DNA of 43,179 nucleotides, taken from the IMG/VR virus record IMGVR_UViG_3300010373_000019, positions 1 through 43,179 of that record. One strand, 5' to 3'. Origin of the DNA: a virus. Position numbers and translations under genes: made by a program. Below are positions 6,002-37,980 of the stretch, in pieces; position 1 is the stretch's first letter, and each line of letters starts with the position of its first letter. Below the pieces are notes generated by a model. That model was not told the DNA's origin, made no database searches, and saw only the letters and a program-made list of their open reading frames with translations.

Positions 6002-9000
6002 ATGGATTCTATCTTTGACAGTGTTGGGCAGTCTTCCACTTCTAGCGACCCTGTGGTTACGCCACCCTCTCAAGGTGATGTTAATTCCTTGTTACAACAA
6101 GCTACTGCGATGGCCAACCAAGGTGGGCCTGGCGCAAACGTAGCTGCTGCGGATAAGTGGTTGCAGGAGCAGATGACTAAGGAAGGTGCGCAGCCCAATG
6201 GCAAGCAGCCCAGCATCTTTGATGGAATGCCGGCAGGTAAACTTAAGGAGGCATCTGATGTAACACATAAGGAAACTTCAAACACTTCTGATGCATTCAA
6301 ACCTGATAGTGGCTTGGCTACCTTTGGGAAGAGTTTCCTTGCAGGAGTGCAGACCTCAATACTTGATCCTGTTGCAAGATTACAGTCACAGGTATTTAAT
6401 TACTTGTCTCACCCGGAAGCACTCCAGACCATTGATGCGGGAAAAATTACTCCACAGCAAAAAGAAGCAGCCAAGTTGATTGGTGCTGATGTGGGAGATA
6501 ACTGGGGCAAGATTCTTAAAATGTCTCCGGAGGACCTTGAGAAATTTAGGAGTTCCTCCGAGGAAGCATTTGGGTTTAATCAAGATGAACAGAAGGCAAG
6601 GGATGCTGCCATCGCTGCTGGTAAGGAATACTCCGGTCCTATGGAGGGATTGTTGCAGCATAGCGCTCTGAAGGACCTCCTGGGATATGTTTATAATCCA
6701 AATGAATCCAATACCAAACTTTATCAGAAAGTAAATGAGGTGGTTAAGCTACAGGATATGGTAACTAATCCCAGTAAGTATGATCCTAAGCAAGTTGTAG
6801 CAGCGCAGAAGATTCTCACTGCCTACAAAACTCAATCTGCCGAAGGTCTTGGTACAAAAGTTAAGGAAGGTCTAAAAGGGGCTATCCAGAATCCTCTTGG
6901 TACTCTCAATGCCCTCCTTGCTGATCCGGAGTTGGCACTGGCGCCGGAACTTAAACTGGGGCAGGCTGGATATGCAGCTAAGATTGCAGAGGGTACGGAG
7001 GTGGCTGCAAAGGCAACTCAAGCAGCAGAGCTTGCCAGTAAGATCAAAGGAGTGGCCTCTGCTATGCCTGATATTGCCGAAGCAGCTGGGCAGGCTGCAA
7101 AGGGATATGAAGAGACCGCTAAGACTGCAATGGAGGGGGCAAATAATGTCGCATTGAAGAAGTATGCCACTAGCGTTGCTAGTAGTGGTGTCGCTGGTTC
7201 TGGTATCAATACTGGCATATCTGCTATGCAACAGAAGGAGGAGCAGGGCTATGTGCAGAGGGGTTCTCTACCATCCGCTGCTATTCAAGGTGCTGCCATT
7301 GGTGCAGGTCTGTCTTCACTGGGTGGTAGGGATAATGTACGAGCGGAATTTGAAAAGCACATTCAGGAAAGTGGTACTAGGGAAGCTGGGAATAATAATC
7401 CGCAAACGGATACGCATGGAAACCCTGCTACACAGAATGAGGGGAAGAAACCCGGTGAACCTCTTTCCCCAGATACTCCCATTAATAAAAGTGGCACAGT
7501 TCCATATTATGGAGGTGTAGATTCTAATGGCAAAGTAATCCATCTTGATAAGAATACTCCTGATGTTGTGCAGTATAAGGATCGTTCTGGTAAGCAGGTT
7601 AATATTCCTGTGAAGAAAACTGTTGCCTATCATGAGGCAACAGAGTATCCTCTCATGCACATGGAAGGGCCAATTGAATCTGACACTCTTGCTAAGCTGA
7701 AGGAGAAGATCGCTGGGCAAGGTACACTCTCCAAGGAAGTTGAGGGGAAATTAGTAAAGGGTGAATCCCTCTCCTATCCAGAGGCACATGAGATTGCCAC
7801 GTGGGCTGAAAATAATATGGTTCATCAGTTGTATGACGTTGACCCGAAGGTATATCAGAAGGGACTGAAACCGTATATTAAGGATGTAGGGAATGCAGCG
7901 GAGAAGGCTCCTGCTAGTAGTATTCCAGAAACATTGGATACCAAACCCTATGATGACATGAATCATCCGGAGAATCTCAAAGGACGTGGTAAGCGACCTG
8001 TCGTAGATGCAATCAAAGGAGGTGCTAAGACTGCCGCTGTTCTAGGTGGAGGTGCCGCTGCTGGTGCCTACCTATCTGATAAGGATCAGAAAGGTAAGGG
8101 TGCCCTTGGTGGCAGTCTTGCCATGTTCCTAGGTAAACTGGCTAGGACGCATGACTTCGCTGCACAGGAATTGGCGGAAGGAATGGAACGAGCGGGTAAG
8201 ACACCGGAGGAAATCCATCAGCAGACTGGTATGTTCAAGAGTATAAATGGGCAATGGCTGCATGAGATTTCTGATCTAGGAATGGACTTTGATAGGGCTA
8301 AGCTGGCAGAGACAGAGAAAACTGGCAAGGCAGTCCCACTCTTTGATGTACTTAAGCATCCTGAATTGGAGAAGGCGTATGGGCATATATTAGGAAGGGT
8401 GAAGGTACGACAGCAGAGTATGGAAGGACTGGGCGGTTACTACAATCCGCATGATAAAGTCTTGACTCTGAATGATCCAAAGTATCTAGATAAGCTAGCT
8501 AAGAGACACAAGGATGAAGGACTCAAGCCGGAATCCATCTTCGCCCACGAAACTCAACATGCCATTCAGCATGCGGAAGGACTTCCTACTGGAGATTCTC
8601 CCCAGAGGCACTTGAGGAACCTTGAAATTAATAAGCAATTCATGGAGGATAATCTTTCTGAATATCAGAATGTAGTTAGTAAGTTGAGGGATATGGGGAA
8701 GCATTCACTTGCTGATTCCTATATGGTGAAGGCTAATGAACTGAGGAAGGACATTAGCAGTAGGTATACTCCTCGTGCAATGCAGGAGGAAGCGCAGAGG
8801 CGCTATAGGGCTAGCGCAGGGGAACAGGAGGCATTCAATGTTCAGGATCGCTTCAATATGACTCCAGAGGAAAGGGCTAAGTCCTTCCCTCCTAGTACGA
8901 TGACTCTTCCTTATGAGGATCAAAATGTAAGGTATAATTCGGAGTCTTTTCATGTGCTACCTAATATTTCTTCTCTAAAAGATAATTATACCAAGCCTCT

Positions 9001-11584
9001 ATCTGCCTATTCAGATACCATGTATCATGATACAGGAATGGATGATTTATTTTATATAGTCCCAAAAGGAAGGTCTACAACTAATGTGGGTGATCTTTAT
9101 GTTTCAAATTCACCTGACCTTGCCACAGGCCAACATGGAAGATCTGGAGTAATGGTACAGTTTGATGCAAGTAAGTTAAAGGGTCAAATCAATAAAGAAA
9201 AACCTACTTGGGAATATTCGTGGGATCGGGGGCAAGGTGAATTTATTACTCGACATATGAGGGGTATTGATTATAGGAATGCTGTAAAGGGATTTACTAT
9301 CCAACCTGATGCTAGAATCTCCAAAGTACAAAGAATGCAATTACATAATTTAGAAGTAGATTTGTTAAGGGAGGGATGGAAGAAGATCGAGAATGGTGAT
9401 GGTTCTACTACGTATCAAAAACCTTCAGTAGGAACACCAACGTCCCAGCAAGGTTTCGTAACCTTCGATCAAGCAAAGAGGCTTGCCCTCTTGGCTAGCG
9501 GTGGCCTTGCTGGATATGCAATGGCCAGCGACCAGCATAAGTTGGCTGGGGCTATTAAGGGTAGTTTGGCTGGACTTATCCTTGGCAATGCAACCTGGAA
9601 GGGTACGCAGAATCTCATTGCTAGATTGAAGGAGGCCGACACACAACCTCGTGTTTCTAGTGTTCTGGATGGTCTGGAAGCAAGTAGGCAGATTGCCAAC
9701 CGTCATCTCTTTGCCACCTCTCAAGCTATCCGTTCAACTGTTCCTGACCCAGTTAGGAGAACTGCTATTGCGCATTGGTTGGAGGGAGATCGTACTATTA
9801 CACTCTCATCGGAGGAAAAGAAAGCAGCCCTCCAGACTCGTCTTGAGTTTGATTCCCTCCTAAGTCAGGCGCAGCAACTTGGGATTATTAAGCAGGGCCT
9901 TGCTGATTATGTAACTCATATCTACTCGAAAGATCCTGTTACCCAGTCTCTCTTGGAACAATATAAGGCTAGCAATGTTAAACAATCCACTAAGTATGGC
10001 TTGCAGAGGAAAGGACCTCCTACACTTAAAGCTGCCCTGAAGGCTGGTTTGAAGGTAACCACAGATATCTCTGATATCTTGGATCACTATGGAGAGGATT
10101 TGAATACTGCCATTCATAGTAAGATTGCCATTAATGCCTTGAAGAAGATGGATGATGGGAAGGGTACACCTCTTGTTATTGGAGCAGCTAAGGCTCCTGG
10201 GCATTATGTTACTAACGATCATCCCGCACTTCGAGGTTTGAAGATTCATCCAGCTATCGCAACGGAAATGTCGCATGTGTTTGATGTGTATAGGCCCGGG
10301 ATTGTAGCAGGTTCTTATGATGCCCTGAATAATGCGGTCCGACGTGTTAAACTGTCCTTCTCCCTATTCCATGCAAAGAACCTTGCAGATGTTGCAATGG
10401 GCATGAAATCTAATCCCCTCGCTAATCTTGCTGATGTTGGCAAAAGTGCAGTGGGAAAGAGCAGGGCACATGAGATGATTAAGAATCCTGTGCCTGGGGA
10501 TGTGATAGATCAGATGATTAAGGGAGGAGCAGTTGGTGAATTCTCCCCTCGACCCTCGGGGAATATGGATGAGGGGAGGCCTATGGAAGCTACTCTCGAT
10601 GCCATTGGAGATAGCCTGGATAAGATTTTTCCTGGCCTTGGCAAGTTAACTGAACCGGTAAAGACGCTAGATCAGGCTACGCAGAAGTTACTGTGGAAGA
10701 ATGTTTGGACTGGTCTTAAGGCATCAGCAATTGAGGCAAAGTTTAATACCCTCAAGAAGAACTGGGCTGCGGAGGTTAGCAAGAATCCACAGGCAAAGAT
10801 GCCTAGTGATGATAATCTTTGGAAAGTTGCATCCTCTTTTGGCAACAATACATTTGGTGGATTGAACTGGAGAAGGATTGCAAATGAGGTGAAGAATAAG
10901 TATCTTCGGGAATTAACGATGAGCAGCTTTGCTCCTCCTGGAAGGAGGAAGCTAGGAGTATTGATGCTTGCTCCTGATTTTACTGCGTCCACAATGAGGC
11001 ATATCATTAAGATGTATGGTGAGGGGACCGGTATTAAGGGAGTTTTTTCACCACGAACACTTGCTGATCTGCATAGGCAATGGTTCATTAAGAGTGCCCT
11101 CTACTATATGGTAGTAGGAAATGCCATGAACTATGCCCTCTCTGGTCACTTCATGTGGGATAATAAAGACCCCTTCATGATTGATATGGGTGACGGAAGG
11201 AAGATGCAATGGTCAAAGGTACTCACCGATCCATTTAGGATTGCGATGCACCCTGGGCAGGAGGCAGTCAATAAATTGAATCCTCTTGTACAGGAGGGAT
11301 TGGATCAAGCCCTTAATACTCAATACCTCTCCGCAGGTGGACATGCACCGAGGATGGAAGGAATGCCTGCTCACCTTGCTCACGCAGCACAGTTGTTTGA
11401 TCCTATTCAATCTAGCCAGATTGGTCAGGCTGGTTGGTCCTCTCTCATCTACGGGACTGCTGGTACTCCTGTATATGGTGAGACGGATAAGATGCGGCAG
11501 GAGAGGAAGGAACAAGGGATTGAAAAGAGGCGACAGGAAAGGAGAAATCATCCTCGTCGGTCAGGTTGGAAAACTCACTATTAA
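6002..11584 (+). CDS. Giant polyvalent internal virion protein with HETQH metallopeptidase-like and ART-like regions
   Basis: The 1860-residue protein is the largest in the genome and stands where P22 gp16 would be. Two glycine-rich hydrophobic segments (about 670-710 and 1160-1195) resemble those of large polyvalent phage proteins. Residues 849-853 are HETQH within IFAHETQHAIQHAEGLP, a zincin-like site. Residues about 977-1140, from YHDTGMDDLFYIVPKGR through GDLYVSNSPDLATG to GEFITRH, look like an ADP-ribosyltransferase-type barrel; the DNA there is more AT-rich than its flanks. The last third (about 1430-1810, with DPFRIAMHPGQEAVNKLNPL) resembles the LPD38-type region. It is probably ejected into the host with the DNA. 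Domain names are from pattern memory. Confidence 0.75.
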   Translation: MDSIFDSVGQSSTSSDPVVTPPSQGDVNSLLQQATAMANQGGPGANVAAADKWLQEQMTKEGAQPNGKQPSIFDGMPAGKLKEASDVTHKETSNTSDAFKPDSGLATFGKSFLAGVQTSILDPVARLQSQVFNYLSHPEALQTIDAGKITPQQKEAAKLIGADVGDNWGKILKMSPEDLEKFRSSSEEAFGFNQDEQKARDAAIAAGKEYSGPMEGLLQHSALKDLLGYVYNPNESNTKLYQKVNEVVKLQDMVTNPSKYDPKQVVAAQKILTAYKTQSAEGLGTKVKEGLKGAIQNPLGTLNALLADPELALAPELKLGQAGYAAKIAEGTEVAAKATQAAELASKIKGVASAMPDIAEAAGQAAKGYEETAKTAMEGANNVALKKYATSVASSGVAGSGINTGISAMQQKEEQGYVQRGSLPSAAIQGAAIGAGLSSLGGRDNVRAEFEKHIQESGTREAGNNNPQTDTHGNPATQNEGKKPGEPLSPDTPINKSGTVPYYGGVDSNGKVIHLDKNTPDVVQYKDRSGKQVNIPVKKTVAYHEATEYPLMHMEGPIESDTLAKLKEKIAGQGTLSKEVEGKLVKGESLSYPEAHEIATWAENNMVHQLYDVDPKVYQKGLKPYIKDVGNAAEKAPASSIPETLDTKPYDDMNHPENLKGRGKRPVVDAIKGGAKTAAVLGGGAAAGAYLSDKDQKGKGALGGSLAMFLGKLARTHDFAAQELAEGMERAGKTPEEIHQQTGMFKSINGQWLHEISDLGMDFDRAKLAETEKTGKAVPLFDVLKHPELEKAYGHILGRVKVRQQSMEGLGGYYNPHDKVLTLNDPKYLDKLAKRHKDEGLKPESIFAHETQHAIQHAEGLPTGDSPQRHLRNLEINKQFMEDNLSEYQNVVSKLRDMGKHSLADSYMVKANELRKDISSRYTPRAMQEEAQRRYRASAGEQEAFNVQDRFNMTPEERAKSFPPSTMTLPYEDQNVRYNSESFHVLPNISSLKDNYTKPLSAYSDTMYHDTGMDDLFYIVPKGRSTTNVGDLYVSNSPDLATGQHGRSGVMVQFDASKLKGQINKEKPTWEYSWDRGQGEFITRHMRGIDYRNAVKGFTIQPDARISKVQRMQLHNLEVDLLREGWKKIENGDGSTTYQKPSVGTPTSQQGFVTFDQAKRLALLASGGLAGYAMASDQHKLAGAIKGSLAGLILGNATWKGTQNLIARLKEADTQPRVSSVLDGLEASRQIANRHLFATSQAIRSTVPDPVRRTAIAHWLEGDRTITLSSEEKKAALQTRLEFDSLLSQAQQLGIIKQGLADYVTHIYSKDPVTQSLLEQYKASNVKQSTKYGLQRKGPPTLKAALKAGLKVTTDISDILDHYGEDLNTAIHSKIAINALKKMDDGKGTPLVIGAAKAPGHYVTNDHPALRGLKIHPAIATEMSHVFDVYRPGIVAGSYDALNNAVRRVKLSFSLFHAKNLADVAMGMKSNPLANLADVGKSAVGKSRAHEMIKNPVPGDVIDQMIKGGAVGEFSPRPSGNMDEGRPMEATLDAIGDSLDKIFPGLGKLTEPVKTLDQATQKLLWKNVWTGLKASAIEAKFNTLKKNWAAEVSKNPQAKMPSDDNLWKVASSFGNNTFGGLNWRRIANEVKNKYLRELTMSSFAPPGRRKLGVLMLAPDFTASTMRHIIKMYGEGTGIKGVFSPRTLADLHRQWFIKSALYYMVVGNAMNYALSGHFMWDNKDPFMIDMGDGRKMQWSKVLTDPFRIAMHPGQEAVNKLNPLVQEGLDQALNTQYLSAGGHAPRMEGMPAHLAHAAQLFDPIQSSQIGQAGWSSLIYGTAGTPVYGETDKMRQERKEQGIEKRRQERRNHPRRSGWKTHY

Positions 11585-14467: not shown

Positions 14468-14843
14468 AAGTATCCAGTATGTAACGATTACAGATAATGG
14501 CTACCTTCTTACATGTGTCTACGTCAAACATCCCGATATGACATGATGATATTGGAATATCTAATTGTTCAGCCAGCCAAACATAACAGCTGCCTCTCTT
14601 TTTTCCATACCTTTTCCAAAGGGGATCAAATGCGGCGTGCGCAGACATTTTTGCTTTTCTTAATTCTGCATTTGCAAGCCTTCCTAAAGGATTTGGAGTT
14701 CCTTCATGGCAACCTACAAAGGCATCACACTCATCACAAAAATAAAATTGCTTTTTAAAAAGATCCGGTCTATGAGGATATATAACTTTCCCAGTTACAA
14801 GTTTAGCTTGATTTCCACAATAATCACAGTTAACTATTTTCAT
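14448..14843 (-). CDS. Zinc-finger protein, DUF3268-like
   Basis: The 131-residue product has CDYCG near residue 6 and FYFCDECDAFVGCHEGT at about 35-50. The patterns VIYPHRPDLFKKQFYFC and PLGRLANAELRKAKMSAHAA are the signature of DUF3268, a phage family with a four-cysteine zinc site. Its role is unknown; it usually sits next to replication genes, as here. I chose the second of two close ATGs because AGGA stands 6 nt before it. Confidence 0.75.
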   Translation of the reverse strand: MKIVNCDYCGNQAKLVTGKVIYPHRPDLFKKQFYFCDECDAFVGCHEGTPNPLGRLANAELRKAKMSAHAAFDPLWKRYGKKRGSCYVWLAEQLDIPISSCHIGMFDVDTCKKVAIICNRYILDTYGTGTH

Positions 14844-16365
14844 GACCATTCCTTTCTTTCAGCATACTAAGGATGGTTGCATGGTCAGTTAGGTCTCTCA
14901 TACCCTCTTTGTTATGTGTTTTATGGAAACTGCCCCAGTTCAAACCAACCTTCGCATCGGTGGCAATTTTGAATTCATTACCATTGTAACAGAGGGTAGG
15001 ACTGGTGTAGGTATTTACTTTATCAATAATTATTTTATACTTCTCTGGATCGGTAATCACATCGACAGGGACTTGCATGAGGATACTATCATGGACTTGG
15101 GCAAGGAGGTCAATGTCGAACTTCCTGGTGAGGAGTTCATCGTGATAGATCTTTACCATCCCTTGATTGAGGGAATCTACTACGGTGGACTGGGGAAGCA
15201 TACTGTAGGCACTTTTCCACAGGTCACTTCCCCACTCACCCATGAAGAGGACCTTTCGTCCGAAGCAATTGGTTAAGGTACGATCTTTCTGGAGTTGACG
15301 CTGCACAGTCTGGTAGTATAGACGAATACCAGGGTAGATTGAGTGGTAGAGTTCAATGATCCTCTTGGCTTCCTTAATTTCAATCTCATTCAGGAGGGCG
15401 AATTGATTGAATCCCTCATCGTAGTTGAGACCGTGATTGGACTTCTTCCCACATTGCCGAAGGGACATGCCCTTGATCCAACCGTTTGTGTAGTATTTCT
15501 GGAGGAGAGAATCCTCCATACGAAGATTATGGATTACACTGGAGTTAGTGGAGTGACCAATGGTCTCACTGTCATGTTTGATGATTTCCTTAGGCACATC
15601 GAACATCAAGGAAGCAGTGTGCACATGCACGTCTACTCCATCCTTGATGGCTTGAATCATGTTGGCATCATTGGCGAGGTAGGCAACTACTACCCATTCC
15701 GCCTGCCTCTTATCAAATTCAATAAGGACTTTTCCCTTGTCAGCGACTAGAAACTTCTTGAATTCCTGGGGGAGATTCTGGTAATTCATACCAGTTCCCA
15801 TGATAGTCTGACTGCTGCTGAGGCGGCCGAACTTAGTTCCCCGTGGATTATATGAGCCCCGTAGTCGACCATCCTCATCGAACTTCATGTTGAGGTAGGT
15901 GTTATATAACTTCTGGAGACCTCGTACTTCCTGAACCAACTTAGCCTCACGCATTCCGTGATACTTGGCAGTACCCCTAGCAAGGCGCTTCATAGCATTG
16001 TCATCGGTTGTTATCTGTTTGGTTTTTGGCTTGAGAATTGGCGGTAGCCCTTTTTCTACATAGAAGTATTGGCTGACCTGTTTGGAACTATTCACGTTAA
16101 GGGGATGGCCACACAGTTCATCGAGTTTACCTTGTTTCTCTGCTGCACTGCGCAGGACGTCCTCTCGTGTCTGCGCCAACAACTCATGGTTGACCTTCAT
16201 TCCCTTTGTCTGGAGGTAAGTCAAGACAGGAAACAGTGCGATGGTCATATTGTATGTGGCATCATATCCTTGTTCATGGATAGCAGACCAGAATTTATTG
16301 TGAATTTCCACCATACACGCACTATCAAGGGCAGAGTATCGAAGGAAGGTTTCATCCATTTTCAT
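14830..16365 (-). CDS. Family A DNA polymerase, Exo III motif plus polymerase domain (split gene, part 2)
   Basis: The 511-residue protein opens with the Exo III motif (YSALDSACMVEI, residues 9-20) of a 3'-5' exonuclease whose other motifs are on the protein encoded at 17312-18316. Polymerase motif A is around EFDKRQAEWVVVAYLAND, motif B is RQCGKKSNHGLNY and motif C is QVHDSILM. Motif B has His where E. coli Pol I has Phe762. Motif C reads HDS rather than the usual HDE. GGAGG precedes the ATG by 7 nt, so this half is translated well on its own. It should replicate the phage genome together with its partner. Confidence 0.92.
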   Translation of the reverse strand: MKMDETFLRYSALDSACMVEIHNKFWSAIHEQGYDATYNMTIALFPVLTYLQTKGMKVNHELLAQTREDVLRSAAEKQGKLDELCGHPLNVNSSKQVSQYFYVEKGLPPILKPKTKQITTDDNAMKRLARGTAKYHGMREAKLVQEVRGLQKLYNTYLNMKFDEDGRLRGSYNPRGTKFGRLSSSQTIMGTGMNYQNLPQEFKKFLVADKGKVLIEFDKRQAEWVVVAYLANDANMIQAIKDGVDVHVHTASLMFDVPKEIIKHDSETIGHSTNSSVIHNLRMEDSLLQKYYTNGWIKGMSLRQCGKKSNHGLNYDEGFNQFALLNEIEIKEAKRIIELYHSIYPGIRLYYQTVQRQLQKDRTLTNCFGRKVLFMGEWGSDLWKSAYSMLPQSTVVDSLNQGMVKIYHDELLTRKFDIDLLAQVHDSILMQVPVDVITDPEKYKIIIDKVNTYTSPTLCYNGNEFKIATDAKVGLNWGSFHKTHNKEGMRDLTDHATILSMLKERNGHENS

Positions 16366-17311: not shown

Positions 17312-18316
17312 TTAATCTTCTCCCTTGATGGATTTGAATTTCACGGTATCTTTCCAGTAAGGTTGACTGCCACAGTAGATACTGCCGAGAAAACCTAGAC
17401 TCTTAGGTAGTTCAGGATACATGATGGAATGGCCAACCATGGTGTCATGGATTTCACCTCTTGTCACGACACCATTGTGGGTGAGGAGAAATGGAATATC
17501 GAACATACCATTCTGCACTACTTTTATACTCTTTTCATTCCCCAAGACTCTCTGAATAGCTCGCCAGATTTGCATTTCCTCATCTATTGTCCATTTGTCT
17601 ACAATGGGGATGACACAGGCCAGCTCGGGGCTGCTGGCGAAACTAATGCAACTTACCTCGTAATTTAGAACTTCAATGTCGAAACCTACGAGGGGTTCAT
17701 TCTCGTAGAAACGTAGCCAATCTAGTGCATCTCCACAGCTTTGGTGGGAGTATACAAGGCTACGATCGGGATACCTAAACTCAGGGAATTGACTTTCCTC
17801 TTTTGCTTTCTTCATATCAGTGGCAATCAAGTAGCGGTATGTGTACATACCACGGATTGCTTGGCTGGGATGGAAGGTGGGGATTACCTTCTTGCCTTCA
17901 ATCAATTTACTTTCAAAAACATAACCACGATACATGGAGAGGTGAGTTAAGCTACACAGAGCAGCGAAGGAAGCTGGGCCAAGGGCAATGATGATGTTGG
18001 GATTAATGTCAATTAACTCATCTCGCAGGGATTCAACATACTGATATCCAGCATCGGTAAATACCCCCTTATCCTCATCCACAAACTTGTTGCGATAGAT
18101 TACCTTCTCTTTAATGAGGTTGGTGATGTAGCATTCCCCACGGATAATGCCTGCATTGTGCAGGCACTGTTCGAGGATCAGGCCAGCTGGCCCGGAGAAG
18201 GGGCGCATGGCATTCATATCATAGCCACTGCTGAAATCACCAACAATGGCTATCTTGCTACCCTTCTTACCGTTAGCAGGAACTAGCTTGGTATTTCCTG
18301 TCTCTGGGTAGAACAT
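17312..18316 (-). CDS. UDG-like domain fused to 3'-5' exonuclease Exo I and II (split polymerase, part 1)
   Basis: The 334-residue protein has a uracil-DNA-glycosylase-superfamily region at about 20-185 (IAIVGDFSSGYDMNAMRPFS, NIIIALGPASFAAL, VIPTFHPSQAIR). A DEDD exonuclease start follows. Exo I is GFDIEVLNYEVSCIS with its Asp-x-Glu, and Exo II is VVQNGMFDIPFLL. It ends shortly after PYWKDTVKFK, just where Exo III should follow; Exo III opens the protein encoded at 14830-16365. Whether the UDG-like part is active is open: SPO1-type phage polymerases also carry such a domain. ATG at 18316 follows GAGGTG. Confidence 0.82.
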   Translation of the reverse strand: MFYPETGNTKLVPANGKKGSKIAIVGDFSSGYDMNAMRPFSGPAGLILEQCLHNAGIIRGECYITNLIKEKVIYRNKFVDEDKGVFTDAGYQYVESLRDELIDINPNIIIALGPASFAALCSLTHLSMYRGYVFESKLIEGKKVIPTFHPSQAIRGMYTYRYLIATDMKKAKEESQFPEFRYPDRSLVYSHQSCGDALDWLRFYENEPLVGFDIEVLNYEVSCISFASSPELACVIPIVDKWTIDEEMQIWRAIQRVLGNEKSIKVVQNGMFDIPFLLTHNGVVTRGEIHDTMVGHSIMYPELPKSLGFLGSIYCGSQPYWKDTVKFKSIKGED

Positions 18317-18324
18317 CACTCACC

Positions 18325-19641
18325 TCACTTTTGCTTTGCATCCTCTTCGACTTTCAGGAGGAAGCGGTTCTTGTATTCTGGGTTCTTATCAATGCCGGTT
18401 GGATTCATTCCCTCTAGGTAAGCTGCTCGCAGTGTTGCGCCACTGCCGGCAAATGGAACAAGGATGTTACCACCTGGAGGACAGAATGTTTGGCAGAGAT
18501 TTCGCATCATACTTACTGGACGCTGCGCAGGGTGATAGGCATCTTGATCGTTGCTGTACTGGAAGGTATTAGTACGTCCCTTGATGTAGATCAGAGGGAA
18601 TCCCTTCCTGCATACGAGGAATGGTTCGTAGGCGCGAGTTAGGACGTCTGGGTTCATTGACTTACTTCCGTTGTTCTTCAACCAAACGGCGGGGGTAATG
18701 TCAACCTTCCAGCCTGCTTCTTCCATTACTTCGAGGATGTCGATATACCAACGCATATTGAACCACCAGATCATGGTACAATTATCACCAGCTACCCGAT
18801 ATAGCTTGGGAAGGATATCATCAAGGAATTTGCGATACTTATTGGGTGGAACATCAATATAGGAAGCATACTTCAACTTCTTCTCGATACTATCGGAAGG
18901 ATTATTCTCACTACTTCCAGATTCGAGGTTGATACCATAAGGAGGGTCACATTCGATGAAGTTGATCTTACTATTATCTTTGAGGGAATCAAGGTAGGGG
19001 AAGATATCACTGATGATGTAGTCATCCTTGGCCCTCTTGAGGACAAAGGTTTCGGGAGATTCTTTACCTCCTGACCTATCTATTTCCTTCTGCACTCGTT
19101 CTTGCTGACGCTTGGCAAGCTCCTGGATGATTACCTCCTCCTCTGCCTTTTTGAGTACCTTCATTGCATCATCGGCAGTTTTACAATTTCCTAGTTCGGG
19201 AAGGATGTCTATGGCGCCTGCTAATCGGAGATTATTACTGACCGTCATGGCAGACTTACCGAGTAGTTCGGCTGTCTTTCTACCTGACCAATTGATGTCT
19301 TTCTCTGCGTAGAGATCATGGATTTTTGCAGTGAGTTTGGCCTTCTCCTGCCAAGTCATATCCTGTCGATGGATGTTCTCGAATAGTTCAACTTCTCTGG
19401 CGTCGATTTCATCTTCTGTGTGGCGTATGATGGCAGGAATGTCGGAGAGGCCAAGTTGCTTACTTGCAGTGTAACGGCGTCCTCCGGCAAGGAGGGTCAT
19501 ATCTTCGGAGAGACATATTGGTTGGATAACACCCTTCTCTTTGATGGATTCCATGAGTCCTTCGAGGTCTCCCATGTCCTCACGAAAGCGGGTGCCGAAG
19601 TTGATGGCATCCAGCTTGACTTTCTTCATGGTGTATTTCAT
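18325..19641 (-). CDS. ParB-domain / DNA methyltransferase fusion
   Basis: The 438-residue protein starts with a ParB/Noc-like N-terminal domain (about 1-115) containing LLAGGRRYTASKQLG and ELFENIHRQDM, the CTP/nuclease-fold boxes of the family. A helix-turn-helix follows (NWSGRKTAELLGKSAMTVSN). From about 220 comes a methyltransferase: ECDPPYG (motif IV) precedes FAGSGATLRAAYL (motif I), the beta-class order for N6-adenine or N4-cytosine enzymes. Phages use such enzymes to protect DNA from host restriction. The AAGGAA ribosome site supports the ATG at 19641. Confidence 0.88.
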   Translation of the reverse strand: MKYTMKKVKLDAINFGTRFREDMGDLEGLMESIKEKGVIQPICLSEDMTLLAGGRRYTASKQLGLSDIPAIIRHTEDEIDAREVELFENIHRQDMTWQEKAKLTAKIHDLYAEKDINWSGRKTAELLGKSAMTVSNNLRLAGAIDILPELGNCKTADDAMKVLKKAEEEVIIQELAKRQQERVQKEIDRSGGKESPETFVLKRAKDDYIISDIFPYLDSLKDNSKINFIECDPPYGINLESGSSENNPSDSIEKKLKYASYIDVPPNKYRKFLDDILPKLYRVAGDNCTMIWWFNMRWYIDILEVMEEAGWKVDITPAVWLKNNGSKSMNPDVLTRAYEPFLVCRKGFPLIYIKGRTNTFQYSNDQDAYHPAQRPVSMMRNLCQTFCPPGGNILVPFAGSGATLRAAYLEGMNPTGIDKNPEYKNRFLLKVEEDAKQK

Positions 19642-25722: not shown

Positions 25723-26133
25723 CTATTGTATCGGCTTCTGATCTCCAAACTTGCGGTGGTGGTAGTTGGCGAGGATGGCACGCATGACAGTTTTTCTGTA
25801 TCCGACAAGGCCGGGGAAGTTGTCGTTTGCCTTGGCGCATTCAATTGCCACATCCACATCCTCCTCACTCGGCCCCTCGGCCAGCTTGGCTAGGTGGGCG
25901 TCGATGGTAGGGATAGCCCAGTACCATTTCCCATCGCGAAGCTGGACGCCCTCAGCCATAGGATGAGGCCGCGCTTCGGATGGTGTGTATTCCCACCATT
26001 CTCGCGATGCAGTCACTACTGATTTGCAGCAACCTTCGAATTGTGCTTGTTCCGGCAGCGGCCATTCCCACCGCCCACTCGATTCGATGTAGCTTGGCTG
26101 CGGGGTTACCTCTTCAAGCGTCATTTTGGTCAT
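25723..26133 (-). CDS. Hypothetical protein with higher G+C codons
   Basis: The 136-residue protein starts MTKMTLEEVTPQPSYIESSG. It has tryptophan-rich stretches (GRWEWPLPEQ, KWYWAIP) and a C-terminal helical part (EDVDVAIECAKAND). Third positions look richer in G and C than in the flanking small genes, as in 26130-26441, hinting that the pair was acquired together. Its start overlaps the stop of that gene. Function unknown. Confidence 0.55.
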   Translation of the reverse strand: MTKMTLEEVTPQPSYIESSGRWEWPLPEQAQFEGCCKSVVTASREWWEYTPSEARPHPMAEGVQLRDGKWYWAIPTIDAHLAKLAEGPSEEDVDVAIECAKANDNFPGLVGYRKTVMRAILANYHHRKFGDQKPIQ

Positions 26134-26441
26134 ACATCACCGCCAATGCGGGCCATGGCCGGACGTGCAGCATCGATTTTCGCGAGGATCGCTCTTCCGG
26201 TATCGCTGAATTGCAAACGATCCTGCAACTGATGCCCTCGAACATCCATCGTGATCAGCGCATTCAAGGCTTCAACAAGTGTCTTGCTATCAACGATCAG
26301 CTCGGCCACGGCTGCACGGGCTTTCTGGAAATCCGCTTCATCGAAGCTGTTCCAGTCGTTATCCATTCGTGCCATGACGGCTGTGTCATCCATCACCGCC
26401 AGCACATCCACATTAGGCGAGTTCATGACTTGCTCATTCAT
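26130..26441 (-). CDS. Hypothetical helical protein with higher G+C codons
   Basis: The 103-residue protein starts MNEQVMNSPNVDVLAVMDDT. It is acidic in front and Ala-rich helical behind (FQKARAAVAELIVDSKTLVE). It overlaps the following gene by 4 bases. Codon composition resembles its neighbour rather than the surrounding phage genes. No family recognised. Confidence 0.55.
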   Translation of the reverse strand: MNEQVMNSPNVDVLAVMDDTAVMARMDNDWNSFDEADFQKARAAVAELIVDSKTLVEALNALITMDVRGHQLQDRLQFSDTGRAILAKIDAARPAMARIGGDV

Positions 26442-26464: not shown

Positions 26465-26492
26465 GCTACTAATTGGGGTAGTAATTAGTAGC
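26465..26492. repeat. 10-bp inverted repeat just after the tRNA-like element
   Basis: GCTACTAATT (26465-26474) and its exact complement (26483-26492) flank an 8-base loop. It begins 5 bases beyond the CCA end of the tRNA-like element on the minus strand. No T run follows, so it is not a standard terminator; an operator or a processing hairpin fits better. Confidence 0.7.
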
Positions 26493-26497
26493 TAATG

Positions 26498-26571
26498 TGG
26501 CGCAGGGTGTTGGAGTCAAACCAACTATCATGCCAACATTAGGCAAGGTAGGATCGTCCTACTAACCCTGC
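26498..26571 (-). tRNA. tRNA-like element with encoded CCA, non-canonical loops
   Basis: The 74-base minus-strand sequence folds as a cloverleaf. It has a perfect 7-bp acceptor stem (GCAGGGT/ACCCTGC), U8-A9, a D-arm-like stem (GTAG/CTAC, extendable to 6 bp), a 4-bp anticodon-type stem (TGCC/GGCA) with loop TAATGTT, a 4-base variable loop, and a 5-bp T stem (GTTGG/CCAAC) with loop TTTGACT. It ends in G plus CCA. Oddities: no G18-G19 in the D loop, T instead of C56, and A instead of U33. Nominal anticodon ATG (His). It may be a decayed or divergent tRNA, or a tRNA mimic. It sits 11 bases after a small gene in the same direction. Confidence 0.5.
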
Positions 26572-26582
26572 AAAATAAGTCA

Positions 26583-26711
26583 TTAGGAAAGTACCTTCAA
26601 CGCCCATGCTGTGATCCAGCAAACTGAGGTGAAGATGGCTCCGATGGAGAATCCCCAAATGAAAGCGGCATTCTCCACCCGGTCAACATAATCCTCTATC
26701 TCACTGTCCAT
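26583..26711 (-). CDS. Small membrane protein (42 aa)
   Basis: A perfect GGAGG 6 nt before the ATG opens a 42-codon frame. It starts MDSEIEDYVDRVENAAFIWG and ends in a hydrophobic helix (GFSIGAIFTSVCWITAWALK). It overlaps the end of the 90-residue gene by 11 bases. An acidic cytoplasmic head and a single span suggest a small membrane-acting early protein, for example one that blocks superinfection. That is inference. Confidence 0.65.
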   Translation of the reverse strand: MDSEIEDYVDRVENAAFIWGFSIGAIFTSVCWITAWALKVLS

Positions 26712-37513: not shown

Positions 37514-37667
37514 TAAGAGGGAGGAGTTGAAGGACGCTTGGGCAGGGGGTGCCTTCATGGGGCCATCCATTGAGGAATGTACAATTAGGAACGCAGCCGC
37601 ACAAGGTGCAGCAAGTATCCTGAATGATATCCTGAACATCAGTTATGAGGAATTCAATAATGATTAA
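37392..37667 (+). CDS. Small head-region protein overlapping the portal 3' end
   Basis: The 91-residue frame begins MQWEKKVDSKTQERLSKVEQ and shares about 120 bases with the portal gene in another frame. The part beyond the portal stop (DAWAGGAFMGPSIEECTIRN, AAAQGAASILNDILNISYEEF) resembles small helical proteins that follow portal genes in other phages. The exact start is uncertain within the overlap. It overlaps the GroES-like gene by 8 bases. Confidence 0.62.
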   Translation: MQWEKKVDSKTQERLSKVEQELFKEWKDHPVTNLLFQWASDKREELKDAWAGGAFMGPSIEECTIRNAAAQGAASILNDILNISYEEFNND

Positions 37668-37980
37668 TGGTAGTGGTCTCATCCCAAGGGGCAGGGCAGT
37701 TCTCATCAAGCCCTATGAACCGGCAAAGAAGGCAGGCCTCATTGTTATCCCAGAATCCGCTAGTGTCAATATGCAATCCGTGGAACAAAGGGCAATTGTG
37801 GTTGCAGTAGGTTCTTCATGTTGGATTGACGAGAAGGAACCTCGTGCTAATCCTGGCGATCATGTCCTAGTGAGTGCCTATGCCGGTTATATGGCAAAGG
37901 GCCCTAGTGATAATGAGCAGTATAGGTTTGTAAACGACCGAGATATCTTTGCAGTAATTGAAGGAGGCAGCCATGAGTGA
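37660..37980 (+). CDS. GroES-like co-chaperonin
   Basis: The 106-residue protein matches the Cpn10 layout. It has LIPRGRAVLIKPYEPAKKAG (opening strand), then LIVIPESASVNMQSVEQRAI, which corresponds to the mobile-loop region, then VVAVG, NPGDHVLVSAYAG and a closing DIFAVIEGG. GroES-type proteins cap GroEL. T4 gp31 does this for coat folding. Its place between portal and scaffold suggests it helps fold the capsid protein with host GroEL. AGGA stands 9 nt before the ATG at 37660. Confidence 0.8.
   Translation: MINGSGLIPRGRAVLIKPYEPAKKAGLIVIPESASVNMQSVEQRAIVVAVGSSCWIDEKEPRANPGDHVLVSAYAGYMAKGPSDNEQYRFVNDRDIFAVIEGGSHE

What the first reader, a model, noticed from the sequence alone, without database searches (positions are those of the whole stretch)
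26498..26571. tRNA-like element with CCA but missing the elbow and U33 hallmarks
The minus-strand segment has a perfect 7-bp acceptor, U8-A9, a 5-bp T arm with a 7-base loop and an encoded CCA end, 74 bases in all. It lacks G18-G19 in the D loop and has T in place of C56, so both partners of the tRNA elbow contact are lost together. Position 33 is A instead of U. This looks like either decay or a tRNA mimic that keeps the acceptor/T-arm minihelix. Such a mimic could act on aminoacylation, CCA enzymes, RNase P or host anticodon nucleases.
Basis: partly seen in the sequence, partly recalled or inferred. Interest (0 to 1): 0.7.

Follow-up and report, generated by a model that had tools for sequence, protein, structure and literature searches.

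The report
Phage tRNA relative, probably not decoding
A small phage carries one complete, unusually stable tRNA-shaped RNA gene whose supposedly lost elbow contact is really a swapped base pair found in many viral tRNAs, but whose anticodon loop is too odd for it to be a normal decoding tRNA.

Summary
The element (minus strand, 26571..26498) is real. It is a full 74-nt cloverleaf, not just an acceptor/T-arm minihelix. No comparable cloverleaf appeared in 150 shuffled windows, and its fold is more stable than 50 related viral tRNAs.

The headline claim, that both elbow partners are lost, is wrong. In the usual numbering the 7-nt D loop reads G14 A15 C16 G18 A19 U20 C21, so G18 and U55 are kept and G19-C56 has become A19-U56. 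Of 50 well-formed viral tRNAs with U56 that I pulled from IMG/VR, 49 have A19, so this is a Watson-Crick swap. A covariance model built from 37 of them scores the element at 51.4 bits (E about 7e-13), in the range of ordinary phage tRNAs. The next window hit scores 11.3.

What stays abnormal is A33 (1 of 463 viral cloverleafs), U37, a 27:43 mismatch, and G14/C21 (0 of 463), which extend the D stem. Discriminator and anticodon match no bacterial identity set that I checked. The gene is absent at the same place in the only close relative.

Best reading: a tRNA-derived, probably non-decoding RNA, closest to tRNA-Gly/Thr. It is either kept as a tRNA-shaped decoy or an early-stage relic. Sequence alone cannot separate the two.

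The parts
26498..26571 (-). Whole tRNA-like gene, 74 nt with encoded CCA
   Evidence: covariance model 51.4 bits, E 6.8e-13
26565..26571 (-). Acceptor stem, 5' strand GCAGGGU (positions 1-7)
   Evidence: Pairs 7/7 with 26502-26508; same acceptor as phage tRNA-Gly(UCC)
26563..26564 (-). U8 A9
26548..26562 (-). D arm GUAG-GACGAUC-CUAC; G18 at 26555, A19 at 26554; G14/C21 and A15/U20 can extend the stem to 6 bp
26530..26546 (-). Anticodon arm UUGCC-UAAUGUU-GGCAU; A33 at 26540, nominal anticodon AUG, U37; 27:43 is a U-U mismatch
26526..26529 (-). Variable loop GAUA (4 nt)
26509..26525 (-). T arm GUUGG-UUUGACU-CCAAC; U56 at 26518
26498..26508 (-). Acceptor 3' strand ACCCUGC, discriminator G73 (26501), CCA
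26465..26492 (-). Perfect 10-bp hairpin GCTACTAATT-N8-AATTAGTAGC just downstream of the CCA, no T tract; possible processing or stability element
26583..26711 (-). Upstream small ORF (42 aa), conserved in the relative L002, where a different gene follows directly
26130..26441 (-). Downstream ORF (103 aa), no relative found

Best explanation
This is a tRNA-derived RNA gene carried as an accessory gene in the phage's minus-strand gene cluster. Its elbow uses A19-U56 in place of G19-C56, so it can still fold into an L. It would be cut from a polycistronic transcript by the host's tRNA-processing enzymes and carries its own CCA. Its anticodon loop (A33, U37) and its lack of any consistent aminoacylation identity make it a poor or non-decoding tRNA. 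I think it most likely that it is kept for its tRNA shape and acts on tRNA-handling proteins, most plausibly as bait for a host defence nuclease or as a competitor. Shown: sequence, predicted fold, membership of the tRNA family, the elbow swap by comparison, the abnormal loop, absence in the relative. Inferred: transcription, maturation, non-decoding, and the decoy role.
For: tRNA lineage: 51.4 bits (E 6.8e-13) with a model built from 37 viral A19-U56 tRNAs, against 11.3 for the next window hit; ordinary phage tRNAs score mostly 40-70 with the same model. Elbow swap: G18-A19 in 49 of 50 viral U56 tRNAs; among 217 viral tRNAs from the same contigs not picked by the pattern, 199 are G19/C56, 10 are A19/U56, and none is G19/U56 or A19/C56. 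Engineered A19:U56 works in a mitochondrial tRNA-Ser. Non-decoding: A33 in 1 and G14/C21 in 0 of 463 viral cloverleafs; bacterial identity sets for Gly, His, Asp, Asn and Thr are each only partly met or not met (table in PMC9976931). Kept structure: 20 of 21 pairs intact; 4.3% of simulated decays with three broken invariants keep this many; MFE -30.1 is below all 50 comparison tRNAs (-28.9 to -13.2). Same strand as both flanking genes, in a 141-nt gap. Phage tRNAs acting against tRNA-cutting defences are documented.
Against: No homologue of the element itself was found: a viral scan with its D-loop and T-loop features gave 0 hits, the single close relative lacks it, and phage and plasmid BLAST gave no significant match. 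So there is no covariation or conservation for this RNA, and constraint rests on one sequence. The decay simulation gives only weak support (P 0.043). No defence target is known for this host, and the host is unknown.
Confidence: 0.42

Rival explanations
1. A phage tRNA gene in early decay: it lost use, the D and anticodon loops have drifted, and the stems have not yet broken.
For: Abnormal invariants A14, A21 and U33 plus U37 and the 27:43 mismatch; no homologue and absence in the relative, as expected of a useless accessory gene; nearest tRNA only 46 of 74 identical.
Against: Simulated decay to three broken invariants keeps at most one broken pair in 4.3% of cases; the fold is more stable than all 50 comparison tRNAs; G14 and C21 changed to bases that pair.
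Confidence: 0.35
2. A working tRNA with an unusual anticodon loop (nominal anticodon AUG).
For: Full cloverleaf, CCA and elbow swap; U37 occurs in 2 of 50 viral A19-U56 tRNAs and C33 in 13 of 463 viral cloverleafs.
Against: A33 in 1 of 463 viral cloverleafs; no G-1/C73 for histidine; U73, G3-C70 and C35-C36 missing for glycine; Thr acceptor determinants present but anticodon wrong; unmodified A34 is not usual at this position (general knowledge).
Confidence: 0.1
3. tRNA punctuation: the tRNA shape, with the downstream 10-bp hairpin, serves mainly as a cleavage site (RNase P and 3' enzymes) that splits the polycistronic mRNA between two genes.
For: Lies in a 141-nt gap between two co-directional ORFs, followed 5 nt after the CCA by a perfect 10-bp hairpin; decoding features would be free to drift while acceptor and T arm stay.
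Against: The D and anticodon stems are kept as well, which this role would not need; the relative manages without it.
Confidence: 0.1
4. Chance resemblance to a tRNA.
For: Missed by ARAGORN and by Rfam at gathering thresholds, and no RF00005 match up to E 10.
Against: E about 7e-13 with model R1, 0 cloverleafs in 150 shuffled windows.
Confidence: 0.02

Closest known systems
Phage-encoded tRNAs with an A19-U56 elbow (Thr, Gly, His, Gln and others)
   Same: 74-nt class I cloverleaf, 7-nt D loop with G18-A19, UUUGA T loop, encoded CCA
   Different: Those have A14, A21 and U33 and readable anticodons; here G14, C21, A33
tRNA-Gly(UCC) of phages and bacteria
   Same: Same segment lengths; acceptor GCAGGGU shared with four viral tRNA-Gly(UCC) genes; nearest sequence L205 tRNA-Gly(UCC), 46/74
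   Different: Anticodon loop UAAUGUU, G73 not U73, A3-U70 not G3-C70
Non-proteinogenic tRNA-Gly of Staphylococcus aureus
   Same: A tRNA-Gly relative with altered positions 18-19 that is thought to leave translation (PMC4052509)
   Different: There GG is replaced by UU or CU and the RNA is charged with glycine; here A19 pairs with U56 and the glycine identity is incomplete
Phage tRNAs that rescue from anticodon nucleases (retron-Eco7, PrrC)
   Same: Phage-borne tRNA with an altered anticodon loop (PMC10264068) or used against tRNA-cutting defences (PMC11555353)
   Different: Those are working substitutes for the cleaved tRNA; this one probably cannot decode

Membership tests
tRNA (class I, bacterial/phage) | Cloverleaf with the four standard stems | tested here: met
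   20 of 21 pairs; MFE is the cloverleaf
tRNA (class I, bacterial/phage) | Score in a tRNA covariance model | tested here: inconclusive
   RF00005: no match up to E 10; RF01852 19.7 bits; A19-U56 model R1: 51.4 bits
tRNA (class I, bacterial/phage) | Elbow contacts 18:55 and 19-56 | tested here: met
   G18 with U55 and A19-U56, a Watson-Crick swap seen in 49 of 50 viral U56 tRNAs; by sequence only
tRNA (class I, bacterial/phage) | U8-A14 and A21 core | tested here: not met
   G14 and C21; 0 of 463 viral cloverleafs have this pair
tRNA (class I, bacterial/phage) | U33 and purine 37 | tested here: not met
   A33 and U37
tRNA (class I, bacterial/phage) | Aminoacylation identity set | tested here: not met
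   Gly, His, Asp, Asn, Thr sets compared by eye with the bacterial table of PMC9976931; none complete
tRNA (class I, bacterial/phage) | Expressed, processed and charged | not testable with these tools
   Needs RNA from infected cells
Elbow-less tRNA mimic | No 18/19-55/56 contact possible | tested here: not met
   A19-U56 pair available

The most novel reading that the evidence does not exclude
A phage has turned a tRNA with a swapped elbow into a dedicated non-decoding RNA: an over-stable L-shaped decoy with a re-made D arm and anticodon loop that occupies a host tRNA enzyme or tRNA-cutting defence nuclease.
Probability: 0.25. Interest if true: 0.75.

Novelty: new variant of a known kind. Interest (0 to 1): 0.45.

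Why it matters
It shows that 'missing GG and C56' in phage tRNA-like genes is often a compensated A19-U56 swap, so such genes should not be dismissed as pseudogenes or promoted to elbow-less mimics on that ground. Standard tools missed this gene. If the RNA is made and does not decode, it would be a natural example of a phage tRNA repurposed away from translation, which is testable against tRNA-targeting defence systems.

Tried and rejected
Homologues by the flanking proteins: one relative contig only; one scan found nothing and the other three all hit the same contig. Exact T-arm/acceptor pattern in viral contigs: none. BLAST of the element in phages and plasmids: only short insignificant hits; the best is the T arm of a tRNA-Met in Escherichia phage EC6. 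Window-like D loop plus U56 pattern: none. Histidine tRNA (anticodon AUG): rejected, no G-1/C73. A shifted reading with anticodon GUU (Asn, G73): rejected, the stem would keep only two pairs (from the sequence). CATTAGG direct repeats around the element: judged chance. A19-U56 or an elbow swap in phage tRNAs in the open literature: nothing found, though subscription journals are not covered.

Full report
What is there. The minus strand from 26571 to 26498 reads GCAGGGT TA GTAG GACGATC CTAC C TTGCC TAATGTT GGCAT GATA GTTGG TTTGACT CCAAC ACCCTGC G CCA. These are the segment lengths of a class I tRNA with a 7-nt D loop and a 4-nt variable loop, 74 nt in all. The predicted minimum-energy fold is the cloverleaf (-30.1 kcal/mol, z -4.1), and it is kept when the flanks are included. 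A scan for a cloverleaf with T loop UUYRA and CCA gives this one hit in the window and none in 150 shuffled windows. ARAGORN, Rfam at gathering thresholds and an RF00005 search up to E 10 miss it.

The elbow. Of 102 distinct sequences, 50 have good stems; 49 of these have G18-A19 and one has G18-G19, while 37 sequences with poor stems show GA there 3 times. ARAGORN of the 50 as ordinary tRNAs. Among 217 viral tRNAs on the same contigs that the pattern did not select, 199 are G19/C56, 10 are A19/U56 and none is G19/U56 or A19/C56. So in viral tRNAs U56 goes with A19: the outer elbow pair is swapped as a Watson-Crick pair. The contigs were chosen for holding such a tRNA, so 10 of 217 is not a general frequency. 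In 84,980 bacterial and archaeal genomes a stricter pattern gives only 74 stretches, 68 of them ARAGORN tRNAs, mostly Thr and Gly and many in Mycoplasma, Bacilli and Saccharibacteria. In a human mitochondrial tRNA-Ser, an engineered A19:U56 pair restores aminoacylation lost when G19-C56 is broken (PMC10412605). The window element has G18, A19, U55 and U56 in register. The elbow is therefore swapped, not lost (by sequence; not shown biochemically).

Family membership. A covariance model of 37 of these viral tRNAs scores the element at 51.4 bits, E 6.8e-13, against 11.3 for the next hit in the window. Known phage tRNAs in three contigs and in Escherichia phage EC6 mostly score 40-70, those with long variable arms less. 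The model includes the UUUGA T loop, which favours the element. Its nearest neighbour among 273 tRNAs of 74 nt is a tRNA-Gly(UCC), 46/74; Gly and Thr are the closest isotypes on average. Its acceptor sequence recurs in four viral tRNA-Gly(UCC) genes.

What remains abnormal. A33: position 33 is U in 449, C in 13 and A in 1 of 463 viral cloverleafs. G14 with C21: 0 of 463; together with A15-U20 these can lengthen the D stem to 6 bp with a CGA triloop, the form favoured by the energy model, which would compete with the elbow. U37 is found in only 2 of 50, and 27:43 is U-U. The nominal anticodon is AUG, but G-1 and C73 of histidine are absent. Glycine lacks U73, G3-C70, C35 and C36. Threonine has its acceptor determinants G1-C72, C2-G71, G4-C69 and G5-C68 but not its anticodon (bacterial identity table in PMC9976931). 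Decoding is therefore unlikely, though not excluded.

Decay or use. Random mutation of real tRNAs until three of 19 invariant positions are broken leaves at most one broken stem pair in 4.3% of runs; the element has one. Its fold energy is lower than that of all 50 comparison tRNAs (-28.9 to -13.2). Both point mildly to maintained structure. Against this, nothing like it was found elsewhere: no viral contig has its D-loop/T-loop combination, and the one close relative (IMGVR_UViG_3300038412_000047) has the upstream small ORF followed directly by a different gene and no tRNA-like match anywhere. The element is thus an accessory gene in a variable stretch, on the same strand as its neighbours, in a 141-nt gap, with a perfect 10-bp hairpin after it.

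Mechanism. I hold a maintained, tRNA-shaped, non-decoding RNA slightly more likely than a relic. The most plausible use is competition for, or bait to, a tRNA-handling or tRNA-cutting host protein. Phage tRNAs that counter retron-Eco7 and PrrC are documented (PMC11555353, PMC10264068), but those replace the cut tRNA, which this RNA probably cannot do. Transcription, maturation and the decoy role are inferred.

Limits.

Noticed in passing
L014-L133, L134-L207: Natural A19-U56 elbow swaps account for 49 of 50 viral U56 tRNAs found, but are rare in cellular genomes (74 stretches in 84,980 genomes, mainly Thr and Gly tRNAs of Mycoplasma, Bacilli, Saccharibacteria). I found no description of it in phage tRNAs.
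   Followed up: partly
window 26465-26492, minus strand: Perfect 10-bp hairpin with an 8-nt loop 5 nt after the CCA, no T tract; unique in the window.
   Followed up: partly
window 14830-16365 and 17312-18319, minus strand: Family A DNA polymerase is split over two ORFs about 950 bases apart; the second also carries an N-terminal uracil-DNA glycosylase domain joined to a 3'-5' exonuclease domain. Related phages are also annotated with two or more polymerase ORFs.
   Followed up: partly
window 18325-19641, minus strand: One ORF joins a ParB N-terminal domain to an N6/N4 DNA methylase.
   Followed up: no
window 37645-37980, plus strand: GroES-like co-chaperonin (Cpn10) just after the portal gene, as in two related phages.
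   Followed up: no
window 6002-11584, plus strand: 1860-aa protein with a weak LPD23 (large polyvalent protein) domain near residue 730.
   Followed up: no
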